Made by a program: the position numbers and the translations under genes
Notes under the pieces: generated by a model
Told to the model about the DNA's origin: nothing
Databases searched by the model: none
What the model saw: the letters and a program-made list of their open reading frames with translations, nothing else
Shown: positions 15,495 through 24,005 of the stretch, in pieces
Position numbering within the stretch: position 1 is the first letter of the stretch
Layout: each line of letters starts with the position of its first letter
Assembly: GCA_903939735.1 (NCBI GenBank)
Contig: CAJAIA010000010.1
Location: 1 to 37,560 of the forward strand
Length of the DNA stretch: 37,560 nucleotides
Source of the DNA: an uncultured Ignavibacteria bacterium
Lineage (GTDB): Bacteria > Bacteroidota > Ignavibacteria > Kapaibacteriales > Kapaibacteriaceae
Direction: 5' to 3'

Positions 15495-16373
15495 ATGACG
15501 AATCTCGGAAAACGTGTTCTTGTTGGAGCGGTCGGCATTCCGCTGGCCGTGAGCCTTGTGTATGCAGGCAGCTGGTTCTTCATTGTTGCCCTTGTGGCCA
15601 TTGCATTGCAGGCCTTGCGGGAGTTCTACCATCTGGCCGATAGCAAGCATGCCAGCCCAAATCAGGCGGTGGGAATTCTCGTGACCTCGGCGATGCTTCT
15701 GGGCGTCGGGTACATGGTTGTAGGGGATGGCGCACGGGGTCTGATGGCATCAGCCTCGGTAATCGGACTCGTGATGATGGTCGGTACGATCCTGACGCTC
15801 ACGATCGAGCTCTTCCGAGCCAAAGAGAATGCCGTCTTCAATACATCAACGACGATGTTCGGTGTAACCTACATCGGCATATCGATGGCATCGCTGATCG
15901 GACTCCGCTTCACGAAGCAGCCAGAGCTTCTCGGCACATGGGGTGCAGAGGGCTGCTCGCTCGTCGTCACACTCTTCGTTTCGGTTTGGATGGCAGACAT
16001 CGCCGCCTACTTCGTTGGCCTCACTATTGGTCGACACAAACTGTTCCCGCGCGTTAGCCCGAAGAAATCCTGGGAGGGGGCCATCGGTGGTCTCGTAGGT
16101 TCAACGGCCGGATTTGGGGTGCTTTCGATGTATCTCATGCCATCGCTCGATCTCACGACTGCGCTCATGTGTGGTGCAGTTGTCGGCATCGTCGGTCCAC
16201 TCGGTGATTTATCTGAGTCCCTACTCAAGCGCGACGCCACAGTAAAGGACTCTGGGGAGTTGCTTCCCGGACATGGCGGCGTATTCGACCGGTTCGATTC
16301 GATGCTCTTCGCTGCACCCGTGGTGTTTCTGATCCTTCACGCTGACCACATCGTCAAGCTCTTCACACGCTAA
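15495..16373 (+). CDS. cdsA: Phosphatidate cytidylyltransferase (CDP-diglyceride synthase)
   Basis: A 292-residue integral membrane enzyme that makes CDP-diacylglycerol from phosphatidate and CTP, the branch point of phospholipid synthesis at the inner membrane. Several transmembrane helices start from the N-terminus (VGAVGIPLAVSLVYAGSWFF). The C-terminal third has the family signature: SPKKSWEGAIGGLVGS, then GPLGDLSESLLKRDATVKDS, and PGHGGVFDRFDSMLFAAP. Length is typical. The TAA stop shares its last A with the ATG of the CDF transporter, so translation is coupled. A -7-like box ends four bases before the ATG, and there is no Shine-Dalgarno. Confidence 0.95.
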   Translation: MTNLGKRVLVGAVGIPLAVSLVYAGSWFFIVALVAIALQALREFYHLADSKHASPNQAVGILVTSAMLLGVGYMVVGDGARGLMASASVIGLVMMVGTILTLTIELFRAKENAVFNTSTTMFGVTYIGISMASLIGLRFTKQPELLGTWGAEGCSLVVTLFVSVWMADIAAYFVGLTIGRHKLFPRVSPKKSWEGAIGGLVGSTAGFGVLSMYLMPSLDLTTALMCGAVVGIVGPLGDLSESLLKRDATVKDSGELLPGHGGVFDRFDSMLFAAPVVFLILHADHIVKLFTR

Positions 16374-17308
16374 TGTTCATGCACGTTCACATGGGTGGAC
16401 ATGACCATCATCATGGTCATGATCACCACCATCACGAGCATCGCGATATTCGCCCCTTGCGCATCGCGATTGCCCTCACATCAACCGTATTCATTGCGCA
16501 GGTTGTTGGCGGATTCTACTCTGGAAGTCTCGCGCTTCTGTCTGACGCCGGCCACGTGCTTGTCGATCTCGCATCGCTCCTGATTGCATTCTTCGGGTTG
16601 CGACTAGCAGCCAGGGCGCGGGCGCAGCATGATGTGCGCTACACCTTTGGGCTGCGTCGCATCGAGATTCTTGCCGCACTTACCAATGGATTTCTGCTCA
16701 TTGGCATTTGTATCTACATCGTCATCGAGGCGATACGGCGTCTCGCTGGTGATGATATACACGTGCACGCAGAATCGATGCTCGCAATTGCGATTATTGG
16801 CTTCATCGCCAACGCAATTAGCGCGTTGTATCTCCATCGATCCGAACATGTCACAACGCGCAGTGCTTATCTGCACGTGATGACTGACTTGCTTTCGAGC
16901 GGAGGTGTGATCATTGGTGCAGTTATTCTGTCGGTAACACACTGGGAGTGGATTGATCCCGTGATCTCGATGGTGATTGCAGTGCTGATCACGCGTGGTG
17001 CGGTGTCAGTTATCCGGCAGTCAAGTGTGATCCTCATGGAGTCTGCACCTGACGATGTGCAGCCTGCCGATGTAACCGCCGCGTTGATGTCGATCGATGG
17101 CGTAACGAACGTGCACGATGTTCACATTTGGCAGCTTAGCGTTGGTAGCACAACGGCAACTGTGCACGTCGTTTCCGAACGAAACAGCGACGACGTTGTT
17201 CGCGATGTTCAGAACGTGCTCCGCGAACGATTCAGTATCGCACATGCAACCGTGCAGGTTGAGAGCACACACCTGCATGATGATGGAGGGTGTGGCGCAT
17301 GCGAATGA
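16373..17308 (+). CDS. CDF-family divalent metal exporter (CzcD/ZitB-like)
   Basis: A 311-residue cation diffusion facilitator, probably exporting zinc, cobalt or similar ions from the cytoplasm in exchange for protons. The N-terminus is histidine-rich (HVHMGGHDHHHGHDHHHHEH), a likely cytoplasmic metal sensor or buffer. Six membrane helices follow. TM2 carries LLSDAGHVLVDLASL and TM5 carries LHVMTDLLSS, together giving the H-D/H-D transport site expected for zinc CDFs. The C-terminal cytoplasmic domain has the ferredoxin-like fold (DGVTNVHDVHIWQLSVG) and ends with a CGACE cysteine pair. The ATG overlaps the cdsA stop by one base. The start gives normal family length. Confidence 0.94.
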   Translation: MFMHVHMGGHDHHHGHDHHHHEHRDIRPLRIAIALTSTVFIAQVVGGFYSGSLALLSDAGHVLVDLASLLIAFFGLRLAARARAQHDVRYTFGLRRIEILAALTNGFLLIGICIYIVIEAIRRLAGDDIHVHAESMLAIAIIGFIANAISALYLHRSEHVTTRSAYLHVMTDLLSSGGVIIGAVILSVTHWEWIDPVISMVIAVLITRGAVSVIRQSSVILMESAPDDVQPADVTAALMSIDGVTNVHDVHIWQLSVGSTTATVHVVSERNSDDVVRDVQNVLRERFSIAHATVQVESTHLHDDGGCGACE

Positions 17309-17823
17309 ACGCTCTCTCGCAATGGTTTATGGCCATCGTTCTTACGCTGGCCGCTGGCTTGGTAACGAAGGTGCTTGGTGGCGCTGAGCATCTCCTGGCG
17401 CATGCCGTCGCTTCGATTCTGCTTGAGCTCGCTGTGCCCGGTTTGTACATGGCGCATCTTGCAAGTGAGTTTTTCCCGCCACAACGTGCGCGTGCTATAC
17501 AGTGGCTTGTGTGCGGCGGAATTCTTGCGCTGCTTGTCGTTGTGGTCGTTGCCTTTGTCGTGCCTGCACTATCGATGCCGCTCGTGCATGTTCGCATATG
17601 GAGTTATGTGGCACTCCAGCTGGGCATCGTACTCGGCGTTGTAGCGCTGGGAACAACCATGGCCATGAATTATCTCCGTGTGCCATCAGGTCGATTCCGT
17701 GGTATCACGCTATTGGTGATGGTTGCGCTCGCCGCATCAATTCCATGGGTGTCATGGGATGTTGCCGCCATGCTTGCGGTGCTCCTATTGACCGTCCGTG
17801 TAGTGACGTATCAGCGCGGGTAG
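17299..17823 (+). CDS. Multi-pass membrane protein of unknown function
   Basis: A 174-residue hydrophobic protein with about five transmembrane helices, for example FMAIVLTLAAGLVTKVLGG, GGILALLVVVVVAFVVPAL and LQLGIVLGVVALGTTMAM. I do not recognise the family. I start it at ATG 17299 because GGAGG lies at 17285-17289, nine bases upstream. A GTG at 17290 is too close to that site, and the next ATG (17305) would overlap the CDF stop as ATGA but sits too far. It therefore overlaps the CDF gene by ten bases. The three-gene order cdsA - CDF exporter - this protein suggests one operon, but no shared function is apparent. Confidence 0.75.
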   Translation: MRMNALSQWFMAIVLTLAAGLVTKVLGGAEHLLAHAVASILLELAVPGLYMAHLASEFFPPQRARAIQWLVCGGILALLVVVVVAFVVPALSMPLVHVRIWSYVALQLGIVLGVVALGTTMAMNYLRVPSGRFRGITLLVMVALAASIPWVSWDVAAMLAVLLLTVRVVTYQRG

Positions 17824-17858: not shown

Positions 17859-18488
17859 TCATACAACTCGGAAGATGTCACTCTTCTTGAGTTCCTCAGC
17901 GGAGTGTATCTGCAGCTTGCGATAGATGTTGCGCACGTGCGTGCGCACTGTTTCCACGCTGATGAACAGGGTAGTCGCAATCTCTTTGTAGCTGCGTCCC
18001 GTCACGAGGATGTGCAGGATCTGCTGTTCCCGATCTGAGAGCTTGCCTACGGGCATCTGTGGTTTGACGATGTTGTGAAACGCCTGAATCACCTTGCGAG
18101 CTATCTGGCTACTCATCGGAGAACCACCGGCATGAACTTCACGAATGGACGTTGCCAGTGCGCCGGTCATGTAGGCTTTACCGAGATATCCGACCGCACC
18201 GGCGAGAATCGCGCCGTAAATGCGATCGTAGTCCTCGTATGCTGAGAGCACAAGGAAGTCTGTAGTCGGGAGTTCCGAGCGAAGTGCGGCGATCAACGAA
18301 CTGCCGCTTCCATCAGGGAGCACAAGGTCGATGATGACGACATCTGGAGTGGTTGAGAGCAAGCCAAGCCGCGCCTCTGCAACGGAGGAAGCAGACCCAA
18401 CGACGGTGATGTCTTCCTCGCGCGCAAGCTCGTTGCTGATGCTCTCGCGCATGAGCGTATGGTCGTCGACAACAAATACACGAATCAT
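17859..18488 (-). CDS. NarL/FixJ-family response regulator (REC + LuxR-type HTH)
   Basis: A 209-residue two-component regulator. The receiver domain (1-120) begins MIRVFVVDDHTLMRESI with acidic DD at 8-9, phosphoacceptor D54 in VVIIDLVLPDGSG, S82 in VLSAYED and K104 in YLGKAY. The DNA-binding domain holds LSDREQQILHILVTGRSYKE and a recognition helix in FISVETVRTHVRNIYRKL. Family members dimerise when phosphorylated and control transcription. No histidine kinase gene is adjacent, so it is an orphan here. An AGGGAGGGG Shine-Dalgarno precedes the ATG. It lies tail to tail with the membrane-protein gene (35 bases apart) and head to head with the arsenosugar-type operon across 284 bases, which makes it a candidate regulator of that operon. 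Confidence 0.93.
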   Translation of the reverse strand: MIRVFVVDDHTLMRESISNELAREEDITVVGSASSVAEARLGLLSTTPDVVIIDLVLPDGSGSSLIAALRSELPTTDFLVLSAYEDYDRIYGAILAGAVGYLGKAYMTGALATSIREVHAGGSPMSSQIARKVIQAFHNIVKPQMPVGKLSDREQQILHILVTGRSYKEIATTLFISVETVRTHVRNIYRKLQIHSAEELKKSDIFRVV

Positions 18489-18772: not shown

Positions 18773-19105
18773 ATGTCCTCATATTACAACCCCGCCGATC
18801 TCGGCAAGTTTGGTGCAATTGCAGACTTCCAGCCACAACTGGCAGAGAAGTTCTTCGCCTGGTATGGCGATGTATTCGCCGAAGGCGCTCTTACGCAACG
18901 TGAGAAGTCGTTGATCGCCCTCGCGGTAGCGCACGCCGTACAATGTCCGTACTGCATCGATGCGTACACAACCGACAGTTTGCAGAAGGGAGCAACGGAG
19001 CAGATGATGATGGAGGCTGTGCACGTTGCTGCAGCCATTCGCGGCGGTGCATCGCTGGTGCACGGCGTGATGATGATGAACAAGGTTAACGACGTGTCGA
19101 TGTAA
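18773..19105 (+). CDS. AhpD/CMD-like protein of the arsenosugar-associated peroxidase-like family
   Basis: A 110-residue small alpha-helical protein of the carboxymuconolactone decarboxylase/AhpD superfamily. The redox pair is C58 and C61 in HAVQCPYCIDAYTTD. The AhpD proton-relay histidine after the second cysteine is replaced by tyrosine. From memory, this fits the subfamily found beside arsS (TIGR04029, arsenosugar biosynthesis-associated peroxidase-like). The ATG is preceded by a weak AAGGA 12 bases upstream. ArsS starts two bases after its stop, confirming the pairing. It probably has a peroxidatic or disulfide-reductase role, perhaps protecting or reducing arsenic intermediates. The exact reaction is not known. 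Confidence 0.82.
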   Translation: MSSYYNPADLGKFGAIADFQPQLAEKFFAWYGDVFAEGALTQREKSLIALAVAHAVQCPYCIDAYTTDSLQKGATEQMMMEAVHVAAAIRGGASLVHGVMMMNKVNDVSM

Positions 19106-19107
19106 CG

Positions 19108-20163
19108 ATGGCACTGGCTACAACCTCACTTCTTCGTCGCGGATCGGAGCTCTCCGATACATCGTATCAACTTCGCGTGCTGCGCTCGCACGAGGGCACG
19201 GCGCATCTGCCAACGTTTACGCAATCACTGCGGGCGCATGGAATAGCCCCCTTGCAACCCGTAGAGCCTCGTGTGTTCCAAGTGAACATGGGCAAGATGT
19301 GCAACCAAGCATGCAAGCATTGTCACGTCGATGCAGGACCCGATCGCACCGAGATTATGTCGCGCGAGACGCTCGAGCAGTGCTTGACATTCCTTGCAGC
19401 GACCTCGATCCCTGTGGTCGATCTTACAGGGGGCGCTCCCGAGATGAACCCGCACTTCAGATGGTTCGTCGATGAAGTCGTGAAGCTTGGTCGCACCTTG
19501 ATGGTGCGGTGTAATCTGACAATCATCGTGGCAAATCCGAAGTACAACGACTTGCCGCAGTTCTATGCAGAGCGTGGCGTCCACGTTGTGTCGTCGCTTC
19601 CATTCTACGATGCAGCACACACGGATCGTCAGCGCGGCGGTGGCGTGTTTGATGATTCGATTGCTGCAATGCGCATGCTCAACGATGCGGGCTATGCCCA
19701 GCCGGATAGTGGCTTGCTGCTCGACCTTGTGTACAATCCTGTTGGTGCGATTCTGCCCGGACCCCAAGCACTGCTCGAGAACGACTTCAAGCGTGCGTTG
19801 TCGACAAAGCATAGCGTACAGTTCAATTCGTTGATCTGCATCACGAACATGCCCATCTCACGCTTTCTCGAGTTTCTGATTTCGCGTGGACTCTACGAGC
19901 AGTACATGCAGACGCTTGTGCAAGCGTTCAATCCCGCTGCAGCGCAAGGTGTGATGTGTCGTGATACCATCTCCATCGGATGGGACGGCATGGTGTATGA
20001 TTGCGATTTCAATCAAATGCTCGATCTACCAGTGGCGTGCTCGAGCACACATATCTCATCGCTTACACCAGAGCAGCTACGTGCGCGCACGATCGTTGTC
20101 GACCAGCATTGCTACGGATGCACAGCAGGCGCAGGATCGAGCTGTGGAGGACAACTCGCATGA
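19108..20163 (+). CDS. arsS: Arsenosugar-type radical SAM protein ArsS
   Basis: A 351-residue radical SAM enzyme. The cluster motif is C65-x3-C69-x2-C72 in GKMCNQACKHCHVDAGPD, with the CHVDAGP extension typical of ArsS, followed by VVDLTGGAPEMNPHF. The C-terminal domain has MCRDTISIGWDGMVYDCDFN and ends HCYGCTAGAGSSCGG, likely a second iron-sulfur or metal site. ArsS homologues form the carbon-arsenic bond between dimethylarsenite and the 5'-deoxyadenosyl group of SAM, an early step to arsenosugars. The usual partner ArsM, which makes the methylated arsenic, is not in this window. Translation is coupled to the next gene through ATGA at 20160-20163. Confidence 0.88.
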   Translation: MALATTSLLRRGSELSDTSYQLRVLRSHEGTAHLPTFTQSLRAHGIAPLQPVEPRVFQVNMGKMCNQACKHCHVDAGPDRTEIMSRETLEQCLTFLAATSIPVVDLTGGAPEMNPHFRWFVDEVVKLGRTLMVRCNLTIIVANPKYNDLPQFYAERGVHVVSSLPFYDAAHTDRQRGGGVFDDSIAAMRMLNDAGYAQPDSGLLLDLVYNPVGAILPGPQALLENDFKRALSTKHSVQFNSLICITNMPISRFLEFLISRGLYEQYMQTLVQAFNPAAAQGVMCRDTISIGWDGMVYDCDFNQMLDLPVACSSTHISSLTPEQLRARTIVVDQHCYGCTAGAGSSCGGQLA

Positions 20164-20729
20164 GCGTGCATCGGTGTGGATGGTGCGAGAAGGACGATCT
20201 GTACATCCAGTATCACGATCGTGAATGGGGCGTCCCTGTGCACGATGAACGTACGTTGTTCGAGTTCCTCATTCTCGAAACCATGCAGGCCGGACTCAGC
20301 TGGCATACCGTGCTCAAGAAGCGCGACGCGTTTCGTGCAGCATATCACAACTTCGATGTCAACACCGTCGCGCGCTTCACGTCCAATGATGTTGAACGCC
20401 TCATGCTCGACGCTGGCATCATTCGCAATCGCGCGAAAATCACTGCATCAATTGCCAATGCGCAAGCCTTTCTGCGCGTCGCAGAAGAATGGGGCAGTTT
20501 CGACGCCTATATCTGGAACTTCGTCGATGGTCGACCAGTTATCAATGCGTGGTCAGCGCTTTCCCACCTTCCTGCTACAACCCCATTGAGTGATCGCATT
20601 TCGAAGGATCTCCGCGCACGCGGCTTCGCCTTTGTCGGCAGCACCGTGGTGTATGCGCACATGCAAGCAACAGGGATGGTGAACGACCATCTTACATCGT
20701 GCTTTCGCTACGTAGAGGTGCAGCAATGA
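20160..20729 (+). CDS. tag: DNA-3-methyladenine glycosylase I
   Basis: A 189-residue glycosylase that removes 3-methyladenine from DNA to start base-excision repair. It matches Tag closely: HRCGWCEKDDLYIQYHDREW at the N-terminus, ILETMQAGLSWHTVLKKR with E40, and the C-terminal VNDHLTSCFRY. The structural zinc ligands C6, H19, H177 and C181 are all present. The ATG at 20160 overlaps the arsS stop (ATGA). A frame running from 20001 would extend into arsS and is rejected. Its place inside the arsenosugar-type operon is odd. It may reflect genes turned on together under alkylating or methylating stress, or just operon growth. Confidence 0.95.
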   Translation: MSVHRCGWCEKDDLYIQYHDREWGVPVHDERTLFEFLILETMQAGLSWHTVLKKRDAFRAAYHNFDVNTVARFTSNDVERLMLDAGIIRNRAKITASIANAQAFLRVAEEWGSFDAYIWNFVDGRPVINAWSALSHLPATTPLSDRISKDLRARGFAFVGSTVVYAHMQATGMVNDHLTSCFRYVEVQQ

Positions 20730-21181
20730 TGGACGTCCTTGTAAACCTCGGCATCCTGTGCGCCGGCATCATCGGCATGGAGTTCTTCGTGATTGCATTC
20801 CACCGCTACGTAATGCACGGTGTGTTGTGGCGTATTCACCACTCGCATCACGTACCAACAAAGCATCCACTCGAACTCAACGATGTGTTTGTGGCATTCT
20901 TCATGAGTATTGCTCTTACGCTCATCGTGGTAGGGGGCTTCACCGCCTGGACGTTTTGGGTTGGCGCTGGTGTTGCGGTGTATGGTATGGCCTACTTCGT
21001 GATGCACGACATGGTCATTCACAAGCGGTTCCTACGTCAGCCCCTTCCATCGAACAGGTACCTCCAAGCGGTCTATCGCATGCACATGGCACATCACCGT
21101 CATGTTGCCAACGACACTGGCGAAGCGTATGGGATGTTCCTTGTCTGGCCGCGCTATTGGAACCGTTCAACGGCACAATGA
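20726..21181 (+). CDS. CrtZ-like fatty acid hydroxylase-superfamily protein (beta-carotene hydroxylase-like)
   Basis: A 151-residue membrane protein with the di-iron histidine set of the sterol desaturase/fatty acid hydroxylase superfamily: HRYVMH (H26, H31), HHSHH (38-42), HDMVIH (H94, H99) and HMAHHRH (H120, H123, H124). Spacing and length match bacterial CrtZ, which hydroxylates beta-carotene rings. Transmembrane helices surround the boxes. The start overlaps the tag stop by four bases. No other carotenoid gene is nearby, so in this operon the substrate could instead be a membrane lipid or an arsenolipid precursor. That is inference from position. The start could also be the next ATG codon, one residue later. 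Confidence 0.85.
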   Translation: MMDVLVNLGILCAGIIGMEFFVIAFHRYVMHGVLWRIHHSHHVPTKHPLELNDVFVAFFMSIALTLIVVGGFTAWTFWVGAGVAVYGMAYFVMHDMVIHKRFLRQPLPSNRYLQAVYRMHMAHHRHVANDTGEAYGMFLVWPRYWNRSTAQ

Positions 21182-21765
21182 TGCACGCATCCGTCTGCAT
21201 CGTCATGTGCAAAGCACCCGAGCTCGGGAAGGTCAAAACACGTCTCGCAGCAGAGATCGGCAACGCGCAAGCACTGCGTGTGTACGAAGCACTGCTAGGC
21301 ATCACGCTGCACGCAGCCACGTCCTCCAAATGGGAAACAGTCCTCGCCGTTGATGGTGATCACTCGCGTATGCCAGGACATTCGCATCGCACCGTCGCGC
21401 AGCGAGGCGACGAACTCGGCGTGCGCATCTGCAATGCCATCAACGATGTCGGCAACTACGAACGCATTGTCGTGATTGGTGCAGATGCGCCACGTGTTAC
21501 ACATCACCACATCGCGCAAGCATTCCACGCACTTGATACACACGACGTCGTACTAGGTCCTGCAACTGACGGCGGCTATTGGCTCATCGGCATGCAGCAG
21601 CTCCATCCCGACCTCTTCGCCGATATCCCATGGAGCACCGATCGCGTGCTCACACGCACACGTGAGCGCTGTGAACAACACGCTCGCACTATCGCGCTCC
21701 TCGAAACACTCTCCGACATCGACGTGCGTGCGGACTTGGAACAGCTAATGCCGGACACGATGTAG
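21178..21765 (+). CDS. TIGR04282/DUF2064-type glycosyltransferase-like protein of arsenosugar clusters
   Basis: A 195-residue Rossmann-type protein. It has VMCKAPELGKVKTRLAAEIG near the N-terminus, IGADAPRVTHHHIAQAF, LGPATDGGYWLIGMQQL and IPWSTDRVLTRT. These are the conserved blocks of the DUF2064/TIGR04282 family, labelled arsenosugar biosynthesis glycosyltransferases. The fold is a nucleotidyl- or glycosyl-transferase GT-A type. In the pathway it could add or process the sugar part of the arsenosugar, or act on a nucleotide sugar. Substrate is inferred from neighbours only. The ATG at 21178 overlaps the previous stop (ATGA), with a second in-frame ATG directly after. It is on the small side for a glycosyltransferase. 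Confidence 0.82.
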   Translation: MMHASVCIVMCKAPELGKVKTRLAAEIGNAQALRVYEALLGITLHAATSSKWETVLAVDGDHSRMPGHSHRTVAQRGDELGVRICNAINDVGNYERIVVIGADAPRVTHHHIAQAFHALDTHDVVLGPATDGGYWLIGMQQLHPDLFADIPWSTDRVLTRTRERCEQHARTIALLETLSDIDVRADLEQLMPDTM

Positions 21766-21774
21766 TTTGCGTCC

Positions 21775-22923
21775 ATGCGTATCGCAATCATTGGTAATGG
21801 TAGGGCGGGATCGACCACAGCACGTGTTCTTCGGGAGACGTATGGCTGCGATGTGGACGTGTTCTCCGATGAGGGAGCGCTTCATTATTCGCGACCAGCA
21901 CTGATGTATGTGTCAATGGGCACTGTTGATGCATCGGTTGTTGTTGCAGCACTCCCCGATGCGCAGCACCGCACAATCGGCAGCCTTGATGAACTCGATG
22001 GATACGACGCCATTGTGATCGCTACTGGCTCGATACCTGCGCTGCCAAATTGGTGCGCAATGGTCGATGAACACGTCCAATGCTATACGCAATGGAGCGA
22101 TGTTGCACACCTTGAGCATGTGATTGTATCGAAGAAGCGGTGCGTTGTGATTGGTGGCGGACTGCTCGGAGCAGAAGTCGCGGAAGTTCTGCATCATCGC
22201 TCGGCGCACTATCAGTGGCTTTTGCATGATGGCGGGGTGTTCGCTGATGTTCTTCCTCGGGAAGAGTCGGAACTCATCACGCGACATATGCAGGGTGACG
22301 GAATTCGTATGGCGCTTAATGCAGACGTTGTATCGATCGTGCGTGAAGGCATTCGCGTTACGGGAGTACAATTGCATTCGGGCGAGATCGTTCCATGCGA
22401 TCATGTCATCATGGCCACGGGTGCTCGTCCGTCGATTGCATTGGCTCAGCGTGCTGGAATACCGACTGACGTGGGTATCGTCGTCGATGCGTCATTCCGA
22501 ACGTCACGACCGAACACCTACGCCGTTGGCGATTGTGCCCAACCGCCATGGGGTCTGCGCGCGACCTGGCACGATGCACGTGCGCAGGGCGAACATGTAG
22601 CACATGTGATTGCCGGCACGGCGTCGGCGTATCTACCACAGCTTCCATCGATGCAGGCGAAGTTTCTCCGAAAAGAGTGGTACTCCGTTGGTGCGATCGA
22701 TGCATCAACGTCATCATGGTATTGGGAAGATCCAGTTCATCAGCGTAGCGTGCGATTGCACCATATCGATGGCACCCTTGTAGGTGTGCAGACGGTAGGC
22801 GTGCGCCTGAACCGCGAAGTATGTGAGGAATGGATTCGTCAAGCTCGCACCGTCGACGACGTGCGCGGTATGTTTGCGCATGCCGTCGTCGATCCAGAGT
22901 TCACACCGAAGGTGACGTTATGA
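21775..22923 (+). CDS. FAD-dependent pyridine-nucleotide oxidoreductase (rubredoxin-reductase/NirB-like)
   Basis: A 382-residue two-dinucleotide-binding-domain flavoprotein. FAD site: IAIIGNGRAGSTTARVL at the N-terminus, YAVGDCAQPPWGL near residue 250. NAD(P)H site: VVIGGGLLGAEVAEVL around residue 125. The order and the ATGARPS segment are typical of the group that includes rubredoxin and nitrite-reductase-associated flavoproteins. There are no redox-active CxxC cysteines of the disulfide-reductase type. It is followed by a membrane iron-sulfur protein through an ATGA overlap, so the pair may pass electrons between NAD(P)H and a cluster protein. In this operon ArsS is a possible client, but that is inference. 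Confidence 0.85.
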   Translation: MRIAIIGNGRAGSTTARVLRETYGCDVDVFSDEGALHYSRPALMYVSMGTVDASVVVAALPDAQHRTIGSLDELDGYDAIVIATGSIPALPNWCAMVDEHVQCYTQWSDVAHLEHVIVSKKRCVVIGGGLLGAEVAEVLHHRSAHYQWLLHDGGVFADVLPREESELITRHMQGDGIRMALNADVVSIVREGIRVTGVQLHSGEIVPCDHVIMATGARPSIALAQRAGIPTDVGIVVDASFRTSRPNTYAVGDCAQPPWGLRATWHDARAQGEHVAHVIAGTASAYLPQLPSMQAKFLRKEWYSVGAIDASTSSWYWEDPVHQRSVRLHHIDGTLVGVQTVGVRLNREVCEEWIRQARTVDDVRGMFAHAVVDPEFTPKVTL

Positions 22924-24005
22924 ACCTCGTGCAGATCACACTCCCAGATGCGCCAACTCGCTCGCCGTGGTCATTACGCTACCGAGGTATCGCATCATAT
23001 GCCCTAGCGCTGGTGCTCACTGCACTCTACGTCTGTATCTACTGGTTCCCTGAGGCAATTGCGCCCCTTATCCAACTACTCGATCCACTCGCTCTGCGTG
23101 TTCGTGGTGCAGTCGCCGATCAGTGGTTCTTCTACGGGACGCTCTACACGGCAGCAGTGCTGTTTATGGGCGTACGTATGCTGGTGAAGTACCGACACGA
23201 GCGGTACCATGTGTATCGCACGAGTGTGTTGATGATTGTGCAGCTTCTGTTCGCGTATCTGCTGCCAGCAAGCTTCGAGCGCATGGGACATCAGGCGTTT
23301 TACCTGACGTATTTCTGGCCCCTTAAACCGGAGTATTTGTTTCCGGGATCGATTGATGTGTTGCTCGTGAATTCCGACCGACTCTATGTATTCGTGGGAT
23401 GGTGGATGTTGCTGTGCACGTTTGTGGCAACACCTGTGCTCACGTTTTACTTCGGCAAGCGATGGTATTGCTCGTGGGTATGTGGCTGCGGTGCGCTAGC
23501 CGAGACAGCGGGGGATCCGTTCCGACATCTCAGTAGCAAGAGCGAGCGATCGTGGAAGCTTGAGCGATGGCTGATCTATTCGGTGCTCGTCTGCATCGTT
23601 GTCATCACAGCATTGCTATGGTGGGCAAACGACAGCACGAACGTGTCGATTGCGAATGTGGCACACGTGGCAAATCGCTGGTATGGATTTGCGATTGGTG
23701 CGGTGTTTTCTGGCGTGATTGGCGTTGGGTTCTACCCGCTCCTCGGATCCCGCATCTGGTGTCGCTTTGGATGTCCGATGGCTGCTGTGCTCGGCATTCT
23801 TCAGAAGTATGCATCGCGCTTCCGCATTACGGTACAGAAGGATCAGTGCATTTCGTGTGGCAACTGCAGCACGAATTGCGAGATGGGTATTGATGTGCAG
23901 CAGTATGCAGAGCGAGGCGAGACGTTCAACCGCGCATCGTGCGTGGGGTGTGGCGTCTGCTCGAGTGTGTGTCCGCGTGGTGTGCTGCGCCTGGATCAGC
24001 GATAG
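22920..24005 (+). CDS. Membrane-bound 4Fe-4S protein (NapH/NosR/CcoG-like)
   Basis: A 361-residue protein with about six transmembrane helices and iron-sulfur motifs. The first cysteine group is WYCSWVCGCGALAETAGD (C184), a second is RIWCRFGCPMAAVLGI, as in NapH/NosR/YccM-type polyferredoxins. The C-terminal part (from C310) has two ferredoxin motifs: CISCGNCSTNC and CVGCGVCSSVCP, each for a 4Fe-4S cluster. It likely moves electrons between the quinone pool and a cytoplasmic acceptor. ATGA couples it to the flavoprotein gene, suggesting a two-component reductase. The stop overlaps the convergent S10 peptidase gene by ten bases. The direction of electron flow and the true partner are unknown. 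Confidence 0.85.
   Translation: MNLVQITLPDAPTRSPWSLRYRGIASYALALVLTALYVCIYWFPEAIAPLIQLLDPLALRVRGAVADQWFFYGTLYTAAVLFMGVRMLVKYRHERYHVYRTSVLMIVQLLFAYLLPASFERMGHQAFYLTYFWPLKPEYLFPGSIDVLLVNSDRLYVFVGWWMLLCTFVATPVLTFYFGKRWYCSWVCGCGALAETAGDPFRHLSSKSERSWKLERWLIYSVLVCIVVITALLWWANDSTNVSIANVAHVANRWYGFAIGAVFSGVIGVGFYPLLGSRIWCRFGCPMAAVLGILQKYASRFRITVQKDQCISCGNCSTNCEMGIDVQQYAERGETFNRASCVGCGVCSSVCPRGVLRLDQR

What the first reader, a model, noticed from the sequence alone, without database searches (positions are those of the whole stretch)
18773..24005. Seven-gene arsenosugar-type operon with unexpected members and no ArsM
Seen: an AhpD-like CPYC protein, an ArsS-type radical SAM protein, Tag, a CrtZ-like hydroxylase, a TIGR04282-type transferase, an FAD oxidoreductase and a membrane 4Fe-4S protein, joined by 4-base ATGA overlaps or gaps of at most 9 bases. 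Known: ArsS attaches the SAM-derived 5'-deoxyadenosyl group to dimethylarsenite, which ArsM normally supplies; ArsM is not here. Inference: the last four or five genes may extend the pathway beyond the arsenical nucleoside (sugar transfer, oxidation or hydroxylation, electron supply), or the operon may process a different substrate.
Basis: partly seen in the sequence, partly recalled or inferred. Interest (0 to 1): 0.68.

Follow-up and report, generated by a model that had tools for sequence, protein, structure and literature searches.

The report
Arsenosugar operon with redox companions
This is a real arsenic-sugar-type gene cluster in an uncultured Ignavibacteria bacterium; most of it is of a known kind, but it includes a pair of electron-transfer genes that, across a sample of relatives, accompanies the sugar-activating enzyme of the cluster even where the arsenic enzyme itself was not found.

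Summary
The radical SAM protein is ArsS by its curated model (428 bits, cut-off 300). The full seven-gene order occurs in 4 of 15 ArsS carriers of the family; A, B, E, F, G lie on one contig in 11 of 15, and in the other 4 the contig ends inside the cluster. ArsM is absent from the operon but present elsewhere in the genome (356 bits, cut-off 263). Tag and the CrtZ-like gene look like passengers: each is the genome's only copy found, and carriers exist without them. Gene E, named a glycosyltransferase, has a nucleotidyltransferase fold. F and G are a recurrent FAD/Fe-S pair. In 247 genomes of the phylum G occurs with TIGR04282 (E) in 61 of 62 cases, and among TIGR04282 carriers is independent of ArsS (odds ratio 1.0). 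So: a variant of a known locus. The new lead is a redox pair tied to the sugar-activation gene rather than to ArsS.

The parts
18773..19105 (+). Gene A: AhpD/CMD-like protein, TIGR04169 'arsenosugar biosynthesis-associated peroxidase-like protein'
   Evidence: TIGR04169 182.7 bits, cut-off 120; PF02627
19108..20163 (+). Gene B: ArsS-family radical SAM protein with DUF3641 C-terminal domain
   Evidence: TIGR04167 428.4 bits, cut-off 300; PF12345 and PF04055; C65, C69, C72 invariant in 15 aligned sequences
20160..20729 (+). Gene C: Tag, 3-methyladenine DNA glycosylase I; probably a passenger
   Evidence: TIGR00624 239.2 bits, cut-off 232.5; aligns to solved Tag structures; only Tag found in the genome
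20726..21181 (+). Gene D: CrtZ-like membrane di-iron hydroxylase type; probably a passenger
   Evidence: No library match of its own; relative 36% identical in a crt cluster of G011 matches PF04116; only copy found in the genome
21178..21765 (+). Gene E: TIGR04282/DUF2064 protein with nucleotidyltransferase fold
   Evidence: TIGR04282 191.7 bits, cut-off 134; AlphaFold model pLDDT 95.7 matching 3cgx and 7p97
21775..22923 (+). Gene F: FAD-dependent pyridine nucleotide oxidoreductase, about 30 residues shorter than most relatives
   Evidence: PF07992 149.4 bits; both nucleotide-binding glycine motifs kept, only invariant cysteine C254
22920..24005 (+). Gene G: NapH-like membrane protein with two C-terminal 4Fe-4S motifs
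   Evidence: TIGR02163 66.4 bits, below cut-off 213.05; Fer4_5 and Fer4 domains; cysteine motifs invariant in 15 sequences

Best explanation
A lineage-specific version of the known ArsS (arsenosugar-type) locus. Shown: A and B are the usual TIGR04169-ArsS pair; the genome has an unlinked ArsM; E has a nucleotidyltransferase fold; F and G form a recurrent flavin/Fe-S pair that accompanies E. Inferred: ArsM methylates arsenite; ArsS adds the 5'-deoxyadenosyl group; an unlinked phosphorylase of the PNP superfamily frees the arsenical ribose as a 1-phosphate; E activates it as a nucleotide sugar; F (NAD(P)H side) and G (membrane Fe-S side) pass electrons for a step at or after E. The final transferase is not identified. 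Tag and the CrtZ-like protein are passengers, each the genome's only copy found, doing DNA repair and carotenoid hydroxylation.
For: Curated model scores. Order kept in the family. ArsM on contig C11, 356.3 bits; three PF01048 phosphorylases elsewhere. In named genomes ArsS loci carry A in 77 of 80, TIGR04282 in 37, an ArsM-like gene in 31, and clusters whose scanned representative is PNP in 29, DUF547 in 22, TIGR04283 in 20, rhodanese in 15 of 80. G011, which has A-B-Tag-E-F-G, also has a dedicated AsSugarArsM with a PNP less than 1 kb downstream on another contig. E fold. G with TIGR04282 in 61 of 62; F directly before G in 30 of 32 loci.
Against: No TIGR04283 over its cut-off anywhere in family f1 (own best 91.1 bits, cut-off 182), so the last step lacks an enzyme. 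4 of 17 ArsS carriers have neither ArsM type over the cut-off. The standard ArsM is not clearly commoner with ArsS: 11 of 17 against 11 of 23 (Fisher p 0.35). E and its cassette occur without ArsS in 50 of 152 genomes. G166 has F-G beside A-B with E on another contig. Nothing here shows that arsenic is the substrate.
Confidence: 0.55

Rival explanations
1. F and G are the dedicated electron source of ArsS: electrons from NAD(P)H or quinol reach its 4Fe-4S cluster, or reduce dimethylarsinate to the trivalent substrate.
For: F-G sit in the ArsS operon in the family; F-G directly precede A-B in G166 and lie two genes after ArsS in L098. In G058 and G097 a fused FAD/Fe-S protein heads an operon with DUF547, A and ArsS. 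Strong G within 25 kb of ArsS in 11 of 35 genomes that have both. ArsS and G co-occur before conditioning on TIGR04282 (35 of 52 against 68 of 195).
Against: Among 152 TIGR04282 genomes G and ArsS are independent (41 of 61 against 61 of 91; odds ratio 1.0); 20 of 62 G genomes have no ArsS match (one of them, G006, because its contig may be cut next to E).
Confidence: 0.25
2. Tag acts in the pathway: as an N-glycosylase it removes adenine from the arsenical nucleoside, in place of the PNP seen at other ArsS loci.
For: Tag lies directly after ArsS in 7 of 15 family members and is the only Tag found in each; PNP is a frequent gene at other ArsS loci (29 of 80).
Against: Tag aligns closely with solved DNA glycosylases over its length. 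Carriers G002, G010, G013, G015 and G016 have no Tag at E<=1e-20. G011 has both operon Tag and an ArsM-linked PNP. No Tag at the 80 named ArsS loci.
Confidence: 0.07
3. The operon is a loose run of co-oriented genes: A-B is one unit and C to G have no role in arsenic metabolism.
For: Tag and D come and go. In G029 and G031, outside the family, A-B stand without E, F or G in the stretches fetched. E occurs without ArsS in 50 of 152 genomes.
Against: ArsS occurs with TIGR04282 in 102 of 103 genomes. E-F-G stay with A-B in every family contig long enough to show it. GT2-DUF2064 and FAD-Fe-S fusions stand in ArsS operons of another family.
Confidence: 0.13

Closest known systems
ArsM-ArsS arsenosugar pathway of Synechocystis (Xue 2019 and Cheng 2021, neither held; stated in passages of PMC8552651 and PMC12159101)
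   Same: ArsS family by curated model; an ArsM in the genome
   Different: ArsM unlinked and of the general NF008823 type, not NF038099; extra genes C to G in the operon
Bacteroidota ArsS loci named 'arsenosugar biosynthesis' by NCBIfam
   Same: TIGR04169, ArsS and TIGR04282
   Different: No linked ArsM, PNP or DUF547; no TIGR04283 over cut-off in the genome; Tag, D and F-G present. F-G occur at 9 of 80 named loci, Tag at none, D-like at one
CofC/FbiD-type nucleotidyltransferases
   Same: Fold of E over its whole length: 7p97 Z 20.5, 2i5e Z 19.7, 6bwh Z 18.2
   Different: Only 14-21% identity; E scores 41.9 on CofC TIGR03552, cut-off 105; substrate unknown
NapH/MauN membrane ferredoxin-type proteins
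   Same: Fer4_5 region and paired C-terminal 4Fe-4S motifs
   Different: Far below the NapH cut-offs (66.4 against 213.05); partner is a FAD reductase-type protein

Membership tests
ArsS (TIGR04167) | Score over the curated cut-off | tested here: met
   428.4 bits, cut-off 300
ArsS (TIGR04167) | CxxxCxxC radical SAM motif | tested here: met
   C65, C69, C72 invariant in 15 sequences
ArsS (TIGR04167) | Adenosylates dimethylarsenite | not testable with these tools
   Needs an assay
Arsenosugar locus as annotated by NCBIfam | TIGR04169 partner beside ArsS | tested here: met
   182.7 bits, cut-off 120
Arsenosugar locus as annotated by NCBIfam | TIGR04282 gene in the locus | tested here: met
   191.7 bits, cut-off 134
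Arsenosugar locus as annotated by NCBIfam | Dedicated ArsM NF038099 in the genome | tested here: not met
   Best own match 104.6 bits, cut-off 400; it is the general ArsM
Arsenosugar locus as annotated by NCBIfam | TIGR04283 glycosyltransferase in the genome | tested here: not met
   Best own match 91.1 bits, cut-off 182
General ArsM (NF008823) | Score over the curated cut-off, in the same genome | tested here: met
   356.3 bits, cut-off 263, contig C11
Tag (DNA-3-methyladenine glycosylase I) | Score over the curated cut-off and alignment with solved members | tested here: met
   239.2, cut-off 232.5; 2ofi E 2.3e-62
CrtZ-type hydroxylase | Family model match or carotenoid context | tested here: inconclusive
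   No own library match. Of 8 relatives' copies outside ArsS operons, 2 (G011, G033) lie near crtI
Nucleotidyltransferase fold (gene E) | Whole-length fold match | tested here: met
   Model residues 2-195; 3cgx Z 25.9, 7p97 Z 20.5
Nucleotidyltransferase (gene E) | NTP-dependent activity on a phosphate | not testable with these tools
   Needs an assay
NapH (TIGR02163) | Score over the curated cut-off | tested here: not met
   66.4 against 213.05

The most novel reading that the evidence does not exclude
E, F and G belong to an ArsS-independent module that turns nucleoside-derived (ribo)sugar phosphates into activated sugars, with a membrane flavin/Fe-S pair as its redox arm. Arsenosugars are one use of it, made when ArsM and ArsS feed an arsenical nucleoside into it. 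Support: 50 of 152 TIGR04282 genomes have no ArsS match and G is independent of ArsS among the 152; rhodanese-E-PNP-DUF547-TIGR04283 (G209) and DUF547-rhodanese-E-PNP (G081) stand in genomes without an ArsS match. Not excluded: secondary loss of ArsS; G209 still has an A-like gene close by.
Probability: 0.25. Interest if true: 0.65.

Novelty: new variant of a known kind. Interest (0 to 1): 0.45.

Why it matters
As far as I know (recalled), the steps from the arsenical nucleoside to arsenosugars and arsenolipids have no assigned enzymes. The data suggest a testable order (phosphorolysis, nucleotidyl activation, transfer), change the likely chemistry of TIGR04282, and add a flavin/Fe-S pair as a candidate component. 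They also show that a TIGR04282 gene alone is weak evidence for arsenosugar synthesis: 50 of 152 carriers in the sample have no ArsS match, yet it is counted as an arsenic trait in two papers whose passages I saw (PMC11237643 by model number, PMC13077682 by the annotation name).

Tried and rejected
Rejected: absence of ArsM from the organism; Tag as a required PNP substitute. Thought unlikely but not excluded: D as a dedicated arsenic-pathway hydroxylase. It is the only such gene found in the genome, the genome has two crtI-family genes on other contigs, and 2 of 8 copies outside ArsS operons lie near crtI. Against that reading, D recurs in the ArsS operon in 6 of 15 carriers, and a different family of membrane hydroxylase (PF04116) lies at 9 of 80 named ArsS loci.

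Led nowhere: Rfam gave no match in the window. Literature searches listed no held paper that, from its listing or the passages read, treats F-G or the chemistry of TIGR04282; subscription papers are mostly not held, and the two key ArsS papers are not. Passages only were read in PMC12159101, PMC13171826, PMC9312934, PMC8801600, PMC8552651, PMC11009773, PMC7345539, PMC11237643, PMC13188914 and PMC13077682; all others were seen as listings.

Limits: neighbourhoods come from my own longest-ORF script and BLAST. It lost G in L047, although one search shows it, and lost E in L275, L281, L283 and L289, although one search places it there. Of the clusters one representative each was scanned. The 80 named loci are the best of 592 relatives of a capped scan, differ in length, and two (L061, L062) have the contig lengths of G002 and G010. 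Tests ignore relatedness; the chance rate of the binomial was my guess and I do not use it. Where a genome has two TIGR04282 copies only the better was placed. Other ars genes (acr3, arsC, arsR) were not searched in G000.
Full report
What is there. The window is contig C10 of a 2.47-Mb genome in 45 contigs, estimated 100% complete. The lineage is Ignavibacteria: contigs of congeners G002 and G010 (13,222 and 129,937 bases) have the lengths of public contigs with that label. Seven genes A to G run on the + strand from 18773 to 24005 with four 4-base overlaps and gaps of 2 and 9 bases. Model scores are in the observation check.

Is the order conserved? Of 40 genomes (own included), 17 have ArsS over the cut-off; 15 of these are in family f1, which has 23 genomes in the sample. 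In those 15 (window), A-B are adjacent in 15, E is present in 13, F in 12 (one cut by a contig end) and G in 11. The gaps are G001, G009, G015 and G016, whose contigs end inside the cluster. Tag is present in 7, D in 6, all seven genes in 4 (G000, G003, G005, G007). Some members have an outer-membrane-type protein, an Omp28-like protein or a CRP-like protein between E and F (named by eye or by weak matches). In G006, which has no ArsS match, the contig ends next to E-F-G, so its ArsS may be unassembled. G029 and G031, outside the family, show A-B without E, F or G in the stretches fetched.

ArsM. NF008823 finds ArsM over the cut-off on contig C11 (356.3 bits), just after a gene that by eye looks like another methyltransferase. 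Of the 17 ArsS carriers, 11 have this type, 2 more (G011, G029) have the dedicated NF038099 type, and 4 (G001, G013, G016, G017) have neither over the cut-off; G016 is 86% complete. The general ArsM is not clearly commoner with ArsS: 11 of 17 against 11 of 23 (p 0.35).

Named genomes. A lies near ArsS in 77 of 80, TIGR04282-like in 37, ArsM-like in 31, F-like in 11, G-like in 9, D-like in 1, Tag in none. Clustering added PNP in 29, DUF547 in 22, TIGR04283 in 20, rhodanese in 15 and FA_hydroxylase in 9, named from one scanned representative each. These loci are ranked by likeness to the window protein and are not a random sample.

Tag and D. Tag aligns over residues 4-183 of 189 with a solved Tag (2ofi, E 2.3e-62) and is the only Tag found in the genome (E<=1e-20). 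D is the only such gene found (E<=1e-4). A D relative in G011, 36% identical, stands beside crtI- and phytoene-synthase-type genes, and another in G033 lies about 1.6 kb from crtI; the other 6 of 8 copies outside ArsS operons do not share a contig with a listed crtI match. G000 has two crtI-family genes elsewhere. The simplest reading is that two ordinary genes joined the operon in part of the family.

E. TIGR04282 is called a glycosyltransferase, but the AlphaFold model (pLDDT 95.7, pTM 0.91) matches nucleotidyltransferases over its whole length: 3cgx, a structural-genomics protein of the same sequence family (E 1.4e-50; Z 25.9), 3-phosphoglycerate guanylyltransferase 7p97 (Z 20.5), MM2497 2i5e (19.7) and Rv2983 6bwh (18.2). 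Fold does not prove activity, and glycosyltransferases of the GT-A type have a related fold (recalled).

F and G. F directly precedes G in 30 of 32 loci where the script found G; 20 of the 34 loci given to it were chosen for G and the rest were ArsS loci. F keeps both nucleotide-binding glycine motifs and has a single invariant cysteine among 12 aligned relatives, so no conserved redox disulfide. In G058 and G097, of another family of the class, one 826-residue protein has an N-terminal FAD-reductase domain and C-terminal Fe-S domains like G's, and heads an operon with a GT2-DUF2064 fusion, DUF547, A and ArsS. Its match to the G profile is weak (211 and 214 bits), so it is a distant or parallel fusion.

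Co-occurrence. Three searches over the same 247 genomes gave TIGR04282 in 152 (151 over cut-off), ArsS in 103 and G in 62 (52 strong, 10 weak). ArsS goes with TIGR04282 in 102 of 103 and G with TIGR04282 in 61 of 62; the exception both times is G001, whose ArsS contig ends inside Tag. Without conditioning, G and ArsS are associated (42 of 62 against 61 of 185). Within the 152 they are independent (41 of 61 against 61 of 91; odds ratio 1.0). Proximity does not separate the two readings: strong G lies within 25 kb of TIGR04282 in 18 of 50 genomes (21 of 60 with the weak ones, in five families, f30 giving 12) and within 25 kb of ArsS in 11 of 35. In G166, F-G adjoin A-B and E is on another contig. 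So the case that the pair belongs to E rests on co-occurrence, uncorrected for relatedness.

Genomes without ArsS. From 20 TIGR04282 stretches of genomes without an ArsS match (50 such genomes in all), 4 showed no E to BLAST. Of the other 16, TIGR04283 is directly beside E in 6 (L274, L276-L280), two (L292, L293) have rhodanese, PNP and DUF547 with E, and 8 show none of these. Either ArsS was lost or the cassette also works without arsenic; this is the basis of the novel case.

Mechanism. The order ArsM, ArsS, PNP, E, transfer is inferred from family chemistry and neighbourhood. The transferase is not identified in this genome (no TIGR04283 over its cut-off), which of the three PF01048 proteins would act is untested, and the direction of electron flow through F-G is unknown. 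The verdict 'variant of a known kind' is firm; the assignment of F-G to E is a lead.

Noticed in passing
L048:1457-2998, L052:8874-10553, L053:7208-8788: In G002, G004 and G012 gene E reads in frame into an outer-membrane-type protein (526-559 codons in one open frame) with a signal-peptide-like stretch in the middle; a real fusion or a shared frame.
   Followed up: no
L047:7580-8269 and L051:1968-2702: A second, divergent DUF2064-like gene lies just upstream of A in G017 and G016; similar weak extra copies occur at some named ArsS loci.
   Followed up: no
L167:7135-11095: In G011 a PiT-type permease (by eye), the dedicated AsSugarArsM, a DedA/TVP38-like protein (by eye) and a PNP lie in a row on a contig other than that of ArsS.
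   Followed up: partly
window:16373-18488: Upstream of the operon lie a cation-efflux-type gene (16373-17308), a 177-residue membrane-type protein (17290-17823) and a divergent response regulator (17859-18488); the efflux gene sits upstream of A in most family loci long enough to show it. Identities by eye.
   Followed up: partly
window:21775-22923: F of the window, G003 and G005 lacks about 30 residues found in the other relatives after the SRPALMY motif and has diverged faster than G (33-44% identity to other relatives).
   Followed up: partly
ArsS carriers G001, G013, G016, G017: These have ArsS but neither ArsM type over its cut-off: they may take up methylated arsenic, use another methyltransferase, or have assembly gaps.
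   Followed up: no
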